The notes under the pieces were generated by a model that was not told the DNA's origin, did not search any database, and worked only from the letters and a program-made list of their open reading frames with translations. From NCBI RefSeq assembly GCF_002833405.1, contig NZ_CP025135.1, positions 1,221,501-1,285,500 on the forward strand: a stretch of DNA of 64,000 nucleotides, given 5' to 3'. Position numbers and translations under genes: made by a program. The DNA comes from Planococcus sp. MB-3u-03 (GTDB taxonomy: Bacteria; Bacillota; Bacilli; Bacillales_A; Planococcaceae). Positions 52,251 to 59,423 of the stretch are shown in pieces (position 1 is the stretch's first letter; every line of letters starts with the position of its first letter).

Positions 52251-54662
52251 ATGTCTTTTAATCACAAGGAAATCGAAAAGAAATGGCAGCAACATTGGCA
52301 AGAAAACAAAACCTTCAAAACGGAGAACACGCCGGGCAAAGAAAAATTCTACGCACTTGATATGTTCCCGTATCCGTCAGGTGCCGGGCTTCACGTCGGG
52401 CATCCGGAAGGCTACACGGCGACCGATATCTTAAGCCGCCAAAAACGCATGCAAGGCTTTGATGTGCTTCATCCGATGGGCTGGGATGCATTCGGTTTGC
52501 CGGCAGAACAATACGCGCTCGATACCGGCAATGACCCTGCGGAATTCACGGCGAAAAACATCGAGACCTTCAAGCGCCAAATCCAGGAACTCGGCTTCTC
52601 ATATGATTGGGACCGTGAAATCAACACGACCGACCCAAACTATTATAAATGGACGCAATGGATTTTCATCCAGCTTTACAATAAAGGCTTGGCATATGTC
52701 GATGAAGTAGCGGTCAACTGGTGCCCGGCACTTGGCACCGTCTTGGCCAATGAAGAAGTGGTCGACGGGGTTTCTGAACGCGGAGGCCATCCGGTCGAAC
52801 GCCGCCCGATGCGTCAATGGGTGTTGCGGATCACTGAATACGCAGACCGCTTGCTGGAAGACTTGAACGAACTCGATTGGCCGGAAAGCTTGAAGGACAT
52901 GCAACGCAACTGGATCGGCAAATCCGAAGGCGCGGAGCTCGAATTCAAGATTGACGGCACCGGGCTTTCATTCCGTGCATTCACGACGCGCCCGGATACA
53001 ATTTTTGGCGCGACTTACGCGGTACTTGCCCCAGAGCATAAATTGGTTGGGGAAATTACGACATCTGATAAGAGCGAAGCGGTAGTTGAGTATATCGACA
53101 AAGTAAAAACGAAAAGTGATTTGGAGCGCACGGATCTCGCGAAAGATAAAACGGGCGTCTTCACTGGTGCTTATGCGATCAATCCGGCAAGCGGCGAGAA
53201 AATGCCAATCTGGATTGCAGATTATGTCCTTGCGACATACGGAACAGGCGCGATCATGGCCGTGCCGGCACATGATGAACGCGATTATGAATTTGCGAAA
53301 CAATTCGACTTGCCGATCGTCGAAGTCGTCTCAGGCGGCAACATCGACGAAGAAGCCTACGCTGGCGACGGCGAACTCGTCAACTCCGGTTTCCTTGACG
53401 GATTGAACAAAAACGAAGCGATTGGAAAAGCGATCGACTGGCTCGAGCAACAAGGCGTAGGCGAGAAGAAAATCACCTACCGTTTGCGCGACTGGCTGTT
53501 CAGCCGCCAACGCTATTGGGGCGAACCGATTCCGATCATCCACTGGGAAGACGGCACGATGTCTCCGGTCGATGATAAGGACCTGCCGCTGGAACTTCCA
53601 GTCACAACGGATATCAAGCCGAGCGGGACAGGCGAATCGCCGCTTGCCAATATCGAGGAATGGGTTAATGTCACGCATCCTGAAACCGGCATGAAAGGCC
53701 GCCGCGAAACGAACACGATGCCGCAATGGGCAGGCAGCTGTTGGTATTATTTGCGCTTTATCGATCCGACCAACGACGAAGCCATCGCAGATCCGGAGTT
53801 ATTGAAACGCTGGCTGCCGGTTGATGTCTACATCGGTGGGGCGGAACACGCCGTCCTTCACTTATTGTATGCGCGTTTCTGGCATAAAGTATTGTACGAC
53901 CTTGGCGTCGTGCCGACAAAAGAGCCATTCCAGAAATTGTTCAACCAAGGGATGATTCTTGGTGAAGGCAACGAGAAAATGTCGAAATCCAAAGGCAATG
54001 TCGTCAACCCGGACCAAATTATCGAAAGCCACGGCGCGGATACGTTGCGCATGTACGAAATGTTCATGGGGCCGCTCGAAGCGTCCATCGCCTGGTCGAC
54101 AAACGGACTAGACGGATCTCGTCGTTTCCTTGACCGCGTGTGGCGTTTACTGATCGAAGACGATGCGATTTCGAGCAAAGTCAGCGACCAAAATGACGGC
54201 AAACTGGAGAAAATCTACAACCAGACCGTCAAGAAAGTGACCGAAGACTTCGACGGCCTTCGTTTCAATACGGCAATTTCGCAAATGATGGTATTCATCA
54301 ATGAAGCGTATAAAGCCGACAACTTACCGAAAGAGTATATCGAAGGCTTCGTGAAGATGCTGTCGCCGATCGCGCCGCATTTGGCCGAAGAGCTTTGGAA
54401 CAAACTTGGGCATAGCGAGACGGTAACGTATGAAGCGTGGCCGACATATGACGAGTCGAAACTGGTCGATGACGAAGTCGAAATCGTCGTCCAAGTGAAC
54501 GGCAAAGTGAGAAGCAAGCTGACTGTCGCAAAAGACAGCACGAAGGAACAACTGGAAGAAGCGGCACTCGCCGACGAGCACGTCCAAAAGGCGGCAGAAG
54601 GCAAGCAAGTACGCAAAGTCATCGCCATTCCAGGGAAATTGGTTAATATCGTTGTAGGATGA
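52251..54662 (+). CDS. leuS: Leucyl-tRNA synthetase
   Basis: An 803-residue class Ia aminoacyl-tRNA synthetase. The HIGH motif is HVGH (residues 48 to 51, in [14 protein letters not shown]) and KMSKS is at residues 576 to 580. The editing domain insert (residues about 225 to 415) contains [12 protein letters not shown] and [15 protein letters not shown]. The C-terminal anticodon/tRNA-binding part runs to GKLVNIVVG. Start ATG 52251 follows AGAGGAGGAAAA; the longer frame upstream overlaps the T-box terminator. Expression is under the Leu T-box. Terminator after the stop. No lesions. Confidence 0.98.
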
Positions 54663-54669
54663 AAAATGA

Positions 54670-54703
54670 AAGCCGCCAGGGAAATTTCTCTGGCGGTTTT
54701 TTT
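54670..54703 (+). terminator. leuS terminator
   Basis: GCCGCCAGGGAAATTTCTCTGGCGGT stem followed by seven T. Confidence 0.92.
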
Positions 54704-54773
54704 CATATTGAATAACAATGGGACAGTGAAATTTTAGAGATTCTTGAGACTGGAAGAGTCAATTCTAGAAAAG

Positions 54774-54978
54774 TGAGTGGAAAAGCTTCCGCTTTTCGAC
54801 TGCGTTTCAGGGGACTGCTTGGGGCTCGCAGGATGCGAGTCATGCAGCTGATGCGACAGGACGTCGCGTTTTCAGCTGCCCGGGGATGGGGCGGGTGTTG
54901 AGCCAAGGTGGCAAATAGCGCGCCACCTTTGTCTCGCCAGCCCGCTCGGTCCCCCAGGCGTCGCCCCTTTTCACTCCG
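54774..54978. repeat. Structured intergenic element with nested hairpins
   Basis: The ends GAGTGGAAAAG (54776-54786) and CCTTTTCACTC (54967-54977) are nearly complementary. Inside are CTCGCA-GGA-TGCGAG, then GCAGCTGA...TCAGCTGC enclosing TGCGAC-AGGAC-GTCGCG, then GGTGGC...GCGCCACC. No credible reading frame. GC-richer than its surroundings. Probably a dispersed intergenic repeat; copy number in the genome is unknown. Confidence 0.5.
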
Positions 54979-55150
54979 TCTCCTAGTTTTAGAGTGGAAA
55001 ATAATTTCTTTAGCTCACTCAGCAGAAGGTGTGGAACTGCATCATTTTTAGCTTGCTTCATGTAGAGATAAAAATGGAAATGGTCATCGTCCACTAAATA
55101 CAACAAAAGCTGGCCGAATAGAACATCATATGACCAGACGCCGCTTCTTG

Positions 55151-55380
55151 GGAAGCGATTCCCCACTAGCCCGCAACTGGATACGGAAGTAGAGTTGATT
55201 AAACAGTCTTCACACAACGAAATCGCTCAGCCGCCGAGTGTCAAGGGTGAGCCGACGCAATAAGACAGGTGCTCTTCCTGGCTTATTGCCAAAGGCCAAC
55301 CCAAAGCTAGGTGGTGAATACTAAGATGAAACTTAAATCAATGTTCAATAACATTTCCGCAAGAAAACTCTCACTATCTA
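55151..55380 (+). repeat. 230-bp direct repeat, copy A, with structured core 55230-55315
   Basis: Aligned with copy B over its entire 230 bp, with many substitutions. The core 86 nt folds as GCCGCC...GGTGGT, GGGT...ACCC, GCC...GGC, GCAATAAG...CTTATTGC, CAGG...CCTG with a seven-base loop. Two G-T pairs in the outer helix suggest the plus strand is the RNA-like strand. Located in the gap between convergent leuS and the BaiN-like gene. Confidence 0.7.
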
Positions 55381-55395
55381 TTCCAAACTTATCCA

Positions 55396-55625
55396 GGAAG
55401 CGAGTTCCCCGCTAGCCGGCAACTGAATAAAGAAGCTAATCTGCTTAAACCGTCTTCATACAATGAAATCTCTTAGCCGCCGAGCGTAAAGGGGTGAGCC
55501 GACGCAATAAGACAGACGTTCTTTCTGGCTTATTGCCAAAGGCCAACCCAAAGCCGGGCGGCGACTATGAAGGAAACTGTACTTCAATATTCAGTAACAT
55601 TTCCACAAGAAAACTCCCGCTATCT
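55396..55625 (+). repeat. 230-bp direct repeat, copy B, with structured core 55476-55562
   Basis: Second copy, 245 bp downstream of the first. The core has the same helices, with GCCGCC...GGCGGC (Watson-Crick instead of G-T) and a CAGA...TCTG apical helix in place of CAGG...CCTG, a compensatory pair change. Segments GAGCCGACGCAATAAGACAG and CTTATTGCCAAAGGCCAACC are identical in both copies. No open reading frame is conserved between the copies. Confidence 0.7.
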
Positions 55626-55638
55626 TTGATTCTGTCTA

Positions 55639-56971
<1,333 letters not shown>

Positions 56972-57100
56972 ATAATAAAAACTCACTTTCGTTTTTCTTT
57001 TCAGTATACACGATGAGGCAAAACACGTTGAGTAATTTTGTCTATAGGTGTAAACTATCGTGTAGATTGCTTTTATTTTGAACAAAGTCAGGAGTGCAAA

Positions 57101-58700
57101 ATGTCCTCATTAATTAAAGGTACCGCCATTTTAACTTTAGGTTTATTTCTGTCGAAAGTGCTCGGCGTCATCTACATCATCCCGTTTTACAGTATGGTCG
57201 GGGAAGATAATATCGGACTTTACCAGTATGCATACATACCGTACAACTTGATGCTTGCACTGGCGATATCCGGTGCACCGATCGCTTTTTCCAAGTTCAC
57301 GGCTAAATACAATTCACTCGGTGATTACGAAACCGGGAGGCGATTATTGAGTTCAGGTTTGTTGACGATGATGGTTACCGGCATCTTATCGTTTTGGCAC
57401 TTTATCTGCTGGCTGAGCCACTCGCACGCATCACCATTTCGGAAGATGAGCTCATCTACTCGGTAGATGATATCGCAGATGCGATCCGCTGGGTCAGCTT
57501 CGCCTTGATCGTCGTTCCGTTCATGAGTCTTTGGCGCGGCTTTTCCAAGGCTATAACTACATGATGCCGACCGCTGTTTCGCAATTGATCGAGCAGATTG
57601 TCCGCATCATCTTCCTGCTCGGCGGCGCGTTCGCTGTCATTTATCTTTTGATGGCACGCCGAAGACCGCTATCCAGTTCGCCGTTTTGTCGGCTGCAGTC
57701 GGGGCGCTTGGCGGGCTTGTCACCTTGTATTATTTCTGGCGCAAAAGAAGCCGGAATACAATCACTTACTTGCAACATCCGTTGAATCCTATGATGTGCG
57801 GTTGCGTGATATGTACCGCGAAATCCTACTATATGCCGTACCGGTCATTTTCCTCGGCATCGCCAACCCGTTGTTCCAGTTCGTCGATTTGATGACCTTC
57901 AACCGGGCAATGGCAGCCGGCAATAATATCATGGAGACGGACCTTCTCGGTATCTTGAATTTGACTGCCCATAAACTGGTCATGATTCCAGTTATGCTTG
58001 CGACAGGCTTTTCGATGGCGCTCATTCCGCTCATCACGAAGCATTTCACGCGCAATGAACACTTGCAAGTGACCAAAACATTGGATCAGTCGTTCCAGTT
58101 GATCTTGTTCTTGACCTTGCCTGCAGTCATCGGCATGACGATGCTGTCGGATGAGCTGTATCACGTCTTCTACAAAGTCAGTGATGTCGGTTCTGAGATT
58201 TTGGCGCATTATCTGCCGGTCGCGATCCTGTTTGCCGCATTCCCTGTGACAGCATCGATCTTGCAAGGCATCAACAAACAAAATGGATCATCATCAACTT
58301 GCTGATTGGCCTCGGGCTTAAGGCCTTGCTGAATACGCCGCTGATTATGTGGTTCGAGACGGACGGCGCGATCGCTGCGACAATCATCGGCTATGTCGTC
58401 GCAATTACGATGAATATGATCGTCATTTCGAAGACGATGAATTATCGCTCGAAAATGGTGTTCCGCCGCATTTTACTCATTCTCATCTTGAATGCCGTCA
58501 TGGCGTTCGCTGTGTATTTTGCAATGAATGGCCTCGATTATATTATCGGCATGGACAATAAATTCTTGTCGATGATCCGCATCGTCTTGATCGGCGGAGT
58601 GGGCGCTATTGTCTACGGATACCTCAGCTTGAAGACAGGGCTTGCCCAGAAGCTGCTCGGCGCGAGAATTACGCGCATTACAAGACGCTTCGGCTTCTAG
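57101..58700 (+). CDS. murJ: Lipid II flippase MurJ/YtgP, MVF/MATE-like fold (several frameshifts)
   Basis: A polytopic protein of about 535 residues with 14 hydrophobic segments of the polysaccharide-export/MVF type. B. subtilis YtgP is a MurJ that flips lipid II across the membrane; this orthologue keeps [20 protein letters not shown], the [18 protein letters not shown] segment and the charged TM pair. Five one-base deletions, all in runs (about 57393, 57545, 57650, 57744 and 58281), break the frame; restoring T, T, A, A, A gives an uninterrupted protein. Start ATG 57101 follows a GGAG site; the pseudouridine synthase gene follows 11 bp later, as in Bacillus. Confidence 0.88.
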
Positions 58701-58711
58701 GAGGAACTAAT

Positions 58712-59423
58712 ATGAGAATCGATAAACTATTGTCGAATTCAGGATTCGGCTCAAGAAAAGAAGTGAAAATCTTACTTAAATCGAAAGCGGTGGAAGTGAA
58801 CGGGAAACGGTGCGCGATCCGAAGTTTCACGTTGATGAAAAAGCGGATGAAGTATCGGTCGCCGGTGAACCGGTCGTCTACCGGGAGTTTATTTATTTTA
58901 TGATGAACAAACCGCAAGGCGTCATTTCAGCGACAGAAGACCGCTTCGATGAAACCGTCATCGATTTGCTGACAGAAGGTGAGCAGCGCTTTGAGCCGTT
59001 TCCGGTCGGGCGCCTCGATAAAGATACGGAAGGGCTGCTGCTGATCACAAACGACGGTAAATTGGCCCATGAGCTGCTGTCGCCGAAAAGCATGTCGATA
59101 AAACCTATTACGCGAAAATCGACAGCCCCGTAACGGATGAAGATATAGAAGCATTCAAACAAGGCGTCGTGCTCGATGATGGTTACGAGACAAAGCCTGC
59201 GCAGCTGCACATTTTACACAGCGGGGAAGAATCCGAAATCGAATTGACCATTACGGAAGGGAAATTCCACCAGGTCAAGCGCATGTTCGAAAGCGTGAAT
59301 AAGCAAGTGGTATTTTTGAAGCGTTTGTCGATGGGCACGCTCCAATTAGACAAAACGCTCGAACTCGGAGAATACCGCGAACTAACGGAAGATGAATTAA
59401 CTAAATTAAAACAAAGAAAATGA
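58712..59423 (+). CDS. RsuA-family pseudouridine synthase (YtzG-like; frameshifted)
   Basis: About 238 residues, restored. N-terminal S4 RNA-binding domain (MRIDKLLSNSGFGSRKEVK) and a catalytic domain with the Asp in PVGRLDKDTEGLLLITNDG, preceded by NKPQGVISATED and followed by EGKFHQVKRMFESV. Members modify 16S or 23S rRNA; 16S U516 is likely but not proven. Two A are missing from runs (about 58805 and 59085). Start ATG 58712 follows AGGAGGAACTAAT. It lies in one operon with murJ and shares a palindromic terminator with the convergent small regulator. Confidence 0.87.

What the first reader, a model, noticed from the sequence alone, without database searches (positions are those of the whole stretch)
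55151..55625. Tandem 230-bp repeats with a conserved, covarying hairpin core
Two equal-length copies (55151-55380 and 55396-55625) lie in a gene-free gap. Each core (55230-55315; 55476-55562) folds into the same long arm: GCCGCC/GGYGGY, GGGT/ACCC, GCC/GGC, GCAATAAG/CTTATTGC and an apical helix. That apical helix is CAGG/CCTG in one copy and CAGA/TCTG in the other, a compensatory change. The outer helix uses G-T pairs in one copy and G-C in the other, which fits RNA pairing on the plus strand. No reading frame is shared by the copies. It could be an undescribed small structured RNA, or a hairpin-bearing nonautonomous mobile repeat.
Basis: partly seen in the sequence, partly recalled or inferred. 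Interest (0 to 1): 0.7.

Follow-up and report, generated by a model that had tools for sequence, protein, structure and literature searches.

The report
Transposon-like tandem RNA-hairpin repeat arrays
The two repeats belong to a large family of bacterial DNA repeats, absent from the Rfam library searched, that carry a conserved RNA-like hairpin and look related to small IS630-type jumping elements; in this group of Planococcus they form stable tandem arrays between genes, and what they do is still unknown.

Summary
In detail: two copies of a 228-nt unit (55151-55378, 55396-55624; 80-88% identical, spacing 246/247), each with one long hairpin. They belong to a large family: 66 blastn matches in the own genome, about 37 arrays of 1-4 units. 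A covariance model finds the core in 46 of 46 genomes of the genus and 94 of 261 of the family; in a class sample (18 of 398) no match lies outside the family. No Rfam 15 family matches the units. Covariation is strong (154 double-change cells, 43 in shuffles, 0 of 500 as high). G-U pairs exceed A-C mismatches 64 to 16, as expected for plus-strand RNA. In other Planococcus and other genera the core can lie in short elements whose inverted repeats match those of a 1144-bp IS630 insertion sequence; one site has an empty counterpart. In the own genome these ends are not found (0 of 58 copies). At 3 loci tested, arrays are kept in 36 of 36 locus-genome tests with 1-4 or more units, and the core diverges less than half as fast as the flanking spacer. 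Best reading: immobile descendants of an IS630-type MITE with a constrained RNA fold, most like pneumococcal RUP/BOX. Transcription and function are not shown.

The parts
54668..54701 (+). leuS intrinsic terminator, between leuS and the array
   Evidence: leuS ORF ends at 54662
54771..55050 (+). leader module A: long imperfect palindrome upstream of the first unit, homologous between array loci at near-constant spacing
   Evidence: 53 blastn matches to 54765-54995 in the own genome, some away from arrays; fold
54822..54887 (-). 66-nt segment with the Bacillaceae-1 (RF01690) hairpin, present or absent inside module A in different copies
   Evidence: Rfam match 54825-54880, 41.5 bits against cut-off 35; copies aligning 54771-54821 and 54888 onward without it
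55051..55150 (+). poorly conserved spacer between leader and first unit
   Evidence: mean pairwise divergence 0.359 over the 100 nt before the first unit, 12 genomes
55151..55378 (+). unit 1 (228 nt)
   Evidence: profile match 1-228
55227..55333 (+). core hairpin of unit 1
   Evidence: covariance model R1, 112.8 bits
55379..55395 (+). 17-nt linker between units
55396..55624 (+). unit 2 (229 nt)
   Evidence: profile match 1-228
55473..55580 (+). core hairpin of unit 2
   Evidence: covariance model R1, 113.9 bits
55689..55708 (.). terminator-like hairpin after the array, listed on both strands; probably of the convergent gene

Best explanation
The repeats are old relatives, most likely descendants, of a nonautonomous IS630-type element (MITE) whose cargo is a leader palindrome and a conserved hairpin module. 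Shown: in relatives the module sits between inverted repeats matching those of an IS630 insertion sequence, and one such site has an empty counterpart. Shown: the hairpin covaries and prefers G-U over A-C on the plus strand. Shown: in the own genome the ends are not found, the module lies in 246-nt tandem units, and at three loci tested the arrays stay put across the clade while unit number varies. Inferred: IS630 transposase once moved the ancestors in trans, the ends were then lost in this clade, and units are gained and lost by recombination between neighbours. Inferred, weaker (about 0.3): the hairpins act in cis in transcripts that run into these gaps, as a 3' barrier or processing site.
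For: Matching ends: 25 inverted-repeat pairs at up to 3 mismatches to CTATATAAGTTGAAYTAA, of which 7 are IS630 copies of 1144 bp and 18 (17 distinct, L291 repeats L082) are elements of 163-600 bp. A profile built only from own-genome copies matches 17 of 17 of these elements, E 1.3e-16 to 7.9e-5. The IS ORFs match the IS630 transposase model (NF033545: 146.1 bits against cut-off 100 for the long ORF, 95.8 for the overlapping N-terminal ORF; PF13358 135.1 bits). The own genome keeps a decayed IS630 copy with the same right end. Empty site L201/L140. Covariation 0 of 500 shuffles. G-U to A-C 64:16, 23:9 and 13:3 in three alignments and 66:14 in 121 full units; the unpaired tail shows no C-to-T excess that would explain it (0.134 against G-to-A 0.246). 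Retention: leuS site in 12 of 12 genomes, own included; two other sites in 12 of 12 other genomes each. Divergence: core 0.097-0.125, spacer after 0.272 and before 0.359.
Against: 0 of 58 own copies have either end, so the window copies themselves are not shown to be MITEs; descent rests on homology of the core. Both ends were found for only 11 of 95 matches in other Planococcus loci and 7 of 52 in other genera. PF13358 was not found in 9 of 12 genomes searched, among them G227, G229 and G243 with 100-148 copies. Only one empty site is clean, and its duplication can be read as TA or TAGAT. Only 3 of about 37 loci were tested for retention. Gene conversion among units could also lower divergence. 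The 5' region has a slight C-to-T excess (0.068 against 0.044). No RNA data.
Confidence: 0.68

Rival explanations
1. A host noncoding RNA gene family: the leader plus n hairpin units is an independently transcribed RNA kept for a cellular function, and IS630 ends captured some copies later.
For: Plus-strand wobble bias and covariation in three groups; retention in 36 of 36 locus-genome tests at 3 loci; constrained core; in 50 of 141 arrays the upstream gene points away, so read-through from it cannot make them (42 with both neighbours opposed, 8 divergent; orthologous loci counted more than once).
Against: No plus-strand promoter by consensus scan of 54660-55760; copy number of tens to over 100 with variable unit number; at the leuS site 17 of 17 more distant loci lack full units, 3 of them with weak core matches on the strand opposite to leuS.
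Confidence: 0.2
2. A purely parasitic hairpin repeat: the fold matters only as DNA or in transposition, and retention is neutral inertia.
For: Mobile relatives; intergenic placement: 34 of 141 arrays between convergent and 8 of 141 between divergent genes, against 15 and 25 of 108 array-free gaps of 250 nt or more, as described for pneumococcal repeats (PMC3049150, passages read).
Against: A DNA hairpin gives no plain reason to prefer G-U over A-C on one strand; the hairpin stays constrained in a clade where the ends are not found.
Confidence: 0.1
3. A BIME-like DNA architectural repeat (gyrase or nucleoid protein site) whose regular spacing of about 246 nt is what is selected.
For: 17 of 22 internal spacings are 243-248 nt; 27 of 37 arrays run with replication if the origin is at the contig end, which was not checked.
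Against: Arrays of 1 unit occur at the same loci; other spacings of 224, 234 and 293 nt exist; RNA-type wobble bias.
Confidence: 0.02

Closest known systems
RUP (107-bp repeat of Streptococcus pneumoniae with IS630-Spn1-like ends)
   Same: Short intergenic repeat with terminal inverted repeats similar to those of an IS630 element (PMC3049150; passages, section 5).
   Different: RUP is a simple 107-bp element; this family carries palindrome and hairpin modules in elements of 163-600 bp, a covarying core, and tandem arrays without the ends in one clade. No sequence comparison with RUP was made.
BOX elements of Streptococcus pneumoniae
   Same: Modular repeat whose inner module occurs in variable number, predicted RNA fold, overrepresented between convergent genes, 60.8% on the leading strand (PMC3049150, passages).
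   Different: BOX ends were likened to ISSpn2; here the unit is about 246 nt, the ends in relatives are IS630-type, and in the own genome they are not found. No homology was tested.
Bacillaceae-1 RNA (RF01690)
   Same: A Bacillaceae-1 hairpin lies inside module A of the window (41.5 bits) and, just under the cut-off (34.3 against 35), inside two elements bounded by the inverted repeats.
   Different: It is an optional insert in the leader, not the hairpin core of the units.
bcr repeats of the Bacillus cereus group (recalled; only the word bcr1 was seen, as a term count in the listing)
   Same: High-copy intergenic repeat of Bacillales (recalled).
   Different: No sequence was compared.

Membership tests
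IS630-type MITE (relatives outside the own genome) | terminal inverted repeats matching an IS with a transposase | tested here: met
   17 distinct elements and 7 IS630 copies; 96 single end matches against 5, 1 and 0 in three mononucleotide shuffles; but both ends for only 11 of 95 and 7 of 52 core matches
IS630-type MITE (relatives outside the own genome) | TA target duplication and an empty site | tested here: met
   L201 filled against L140 empty, one clean case, duplication readable as TA or TAGAT; IS630 copies lie in CTA..TAG, 6 of 7 at each end
IS630-type MITE (relatives outside the own genome) | short, with no transposase gene inside | tested here: met
   163-600 bp; no protein search of the elements was run, the length alone rules out the 1144-bp IS
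IS630-type MITE (window copies) | terminal inverted repeats | tested here: not met
   0 of 58 own copies with either end at up to 4 mismatches; none near the window array
Known Rfam RNA family | match over the units | tested here: not met
   none overlapping the window units, even at E up to 10; none overlapping the core in 10 further loci at E up to 1 or in 8 loci at E up to 0.1
Structured RNA | covariation beyond controls | tested here: met
   the controls are not tree-aware
Structured RNA gene | transcription from a defined promoter | not testable with these tools
   no RNA data; consensus scan found no plus-strand promoter
BOX element | sequence homology to boxA, boxB or boxC | not tested
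   compared by description only (PMC3049150)

The most novel reading that the evidence does not exclude
A transposon cargo has become a high-copy noncoding RNA: about 70 units in about 37 arrays per genome, freed of the transposon ends, kept by selection on the plus-strand RNA fold, with unit number as a tunable trait, and with the Rfam Bacillaceae-1 hairpin as one more module of the same mobile elements.
Probability: 0.25. Interest if true: 0.75.

Novelty: new variant of a known kind. Interest (0 to 1): 0.5.

Why it matters
Bacterial MITEs are often treated as decaying parasites. This family offers, within one bacterial family, a mobile form, a matching insertion sequence, an empty site, and a clade where the cargo persists without detectable ends under RNA-type constraint. 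That makes the question of when a mobile repeat turns into a functional RNA directly testable, and it adds a covarying RNA motif not matched by Rfam release 15 in the searches made here.

Tried and rejected
Coding repeat: no called gene overlaps 141 arrays by more than 60 nt. Known RNA: Rfam at gathering score and at relaxed E-values gave nothing on the units. The window's T-box and SAM riboswitch lie elsewhere. A single-species oddity: refuted. Mutation bias as the cause of the G-U excess: the tail shows the opposite bias, the 5' region a slight C-to-T excess. An earlier tally of mine (66 G-U against 135 A-C) used wrong partners for the outer helices and was redone. An empty-site attempt at L082 failed: 7 of 44 genomes matched, the best other flanks only 68-69% alike. 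(order) covered the same 261 genomes. A2 holds some weak opposite-strand matches, so its 23:9 count and its 11 of 95 are diluted; the right end was sought only within 150 nt of the core, which misses elements with an extra domain. Literature: listings for Planococcus with noncoding RNA and repeat; Bacillaceae-1 RNA; intergenic repeats with bcr1; IS630 with MITE and Planococcus; miniature inverted-repeat with Sporosarcina; Planococcus with repetitive element and intergenic showed nothing on this family; papers outside the open library were not seen.

Full report
What is in the window. Two 228-nt units lie head to tail at 55151-55378 and 55396-55624, 80-88% identical over the matched stretches, with a 17-nt linker. 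Each holds one long hairpin. Upstream, 54771 to about 55050, lies a palindromic leader module with a 66-nt segment that holds a Bacillaceae-1 hairpin. The leuS terminator (54668-54701) precedes the leader and a terminator-like hairpin (55689-55708) follows the array.

Copy number. The second unit finds 66 blastn matches in the own genome. In 31 fetched regions plus the window a profile finds 72 matches, 41 of them full length, in 37 clusters, one of them on the small contig C4. With the covariance model, 69 matches at E 1.3e-7 or better turn up in 44 own sources, and 9 weaker ones, 8 of them opposite to a strong match. Of 22 internal spacings 17 are 243-248 nt; the rest are 48 (a broken copy), 224, 224, 234 and 293. 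Units within an array are 80% identical on average (24 pairs), between arrays 74% (796 pairs).

Range. A covariance model from 86 core sequences (R1) matches 94 of 261 genomes of the family: 46 of 46 in the window's genus and 48 of 215 others, in 5 of 19 genera. In a class-wide sample 18 of 398 match at E 1e-4, all in this family; with over 40 genomes the search uses stricter filters that lose weak matches. Three genomes of another genus hold 100-148 copies.

RNA-type selection. On the sequence alignment A1, 98.1% of cells pair, 12 of 21 pairs have double changes (shuffles 8.8; 6 of 500 as high), and 154 cells have both sides changed against 43 in shuffles (0 of 500). Sliding the partner by 1-3 columns gives 5-17 such cells. 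Matches from other genera repeat this (109 against 28.6, 0 of 500; further pair types 27 against 23.8, 18 of 500), with the caution that A3 was fitted to the model. G-U exceeds A-C 64:16, 23:9 and 13:3, per-pair sign tests 0.001, 0.011 and 0.033, and 66:14 in 121 non-redundant full units. In mutual information over the whole unit, core-helix pairs take ranks 1, 2 and 4 and 9 of the top 50; rank 3 (107-141) is not a pair (28% pairing) and many others in the list are not either. None of these tests is tree-aware, so sizes, not exact significance, are to be trusted.

Mobile relatives. In other Planococcus species and other genera the core can lie in elements with ends like CTATATAAGTTGAAYTAA. Seven IS630 copies of 1144 bp in genome G113 have such ends; four of them are 99.9-100% identical. 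Their ORFs match the IS630 transposase model. Planomicrobium sp. Y74 (L201) has an insertion of about 328 bp where P. okeanokoites (L140) has none; TA, or TAGAT, is repeated at both sides. A profile made only from own-genome copies finds 17 of 17 such elements. These loci were fetched because they hold a core, so co-occurrence in a locus is not itself evidence; containment within 163-600 bp between the ends is. In other Planococcus loci a left end was found for 22, a right end for 19 and both for 11 of 95 matches; in other genera for 22, 19 and 7 of 52; in the own genome for 0, 0 and 0 of 58. Random places in the same loci gave 4.2, 1.1 and 0.4%; 19.0, 7.0 and 1.5%; and 0.2, 0 and 0% (many random places in the short loci fall next to the same elements). 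DDE_3 transposase was found in 3 of 12 genomes, the own copy decayed.

Fixation in the window's clade. The leuS-site array is present in 12 of 12 clade genomes tested, own included, and two further own sites, chosen because no orthologue had turned up, in 12 of 12 other genomes each. Unit number varies from 1 to at least 4. These are 3 of about 37 loci. At the leuS site 17 of 17 more distant loci of the genus lack full units; 3 hold weak core matches on the strand opposite to leuS. Mean pairwise divergence over 12 genomes is 0.059 for the leuS 3' end, 0.089 for the next gene's end, 0.129 for unit positions 1-60, 0.190 for 61-80, 0.097-0.125 for the core, 0.251 for the unit tail, 0.272 after and 0.359 before the array. 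Last units may not be strictly orthologous, which would raise, not lower, the unit values; gene conversion could lower them.

Placement. Of 141 arrays with both neighbours called, 57 have both genes in the array's direction, 34 lie between convergent genes, 42 have both genes opposed and 8 are divergent; in the own genome 15, 14, 7 and 0 of 36. Array-free gaps of 250 nt or more are convergent in 15 and divergent in 25 of 108. Genes were called with a simple hexamer score of mine, and orthologous loci of several species are counted more than once. The 42 opposed and 8 divergent cases cannot be read-through products of the upstream gene. A consensus scan of 54660-55760 finds no plus-strand promoter.

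Known kinds. The family works most like RUP (IS630-like ends) and BOX (inner module in variable number, RNA fold) of Streptococcus pneumoniae as described in PMC3049150 (passages, section 5); a MITE review, PMC10969869, was seen in passages only. It is not claimed to be homologous to either. The searches named under Tried and rejected showed no paper on this family.

Judgement. That the relatives with inverted repeats are IS630-type MITEs is well supported. The window copies fail the end test themselves and are best called likely descendants. Selection on an RNA fold is well supported; transcription, mechanism and benefit are open.

Noticed in passing
54822-54887 and L116:2987-3045, L188:775-833: The Rfam Bacillaceae-1 RNA hairpin behaves as a present-or-absent insert within these repeat elements, which suggests that RF01690 is itself a repeat module.
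   Followed up: partly
L109, L111, L138, L148, L194, L211, L169, L187, L147, L113, L173: In these Planococcus and Planomicrobium loci the core hairpin carries an extra inserted domain on its 3' arm.
   Followed up: partly
L228, L229, L232, L236, L241 (leuS-downstream gap): Species without the array carry other short degenerate repeats in the same gap, for example of TGCAAGTAA, GCGTGCATA or TCCGGACAGTA type.
   Followed up: no
G000 contig C4 (L047) against window 55150-58782 and L067: A 7-kb contig joins window-like sequence (98.7%) to sequence like the upstream side of another array (C13:2566458) within the repeats: recombination between arrays, a second strain, or misassembly.
   Followed up: partly
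window 55750-59420: The convergent gene and the next genes appear split over several frames (ORF list), as if the assembly has indel errors or the genes are decayed; not tested and not mended.
   Followed up: no
L263, L264, L266, L276, L288: In genus g3 (unnamed) cores stand head to head or in tandem a few hundred bases apart.
   Followed up: no
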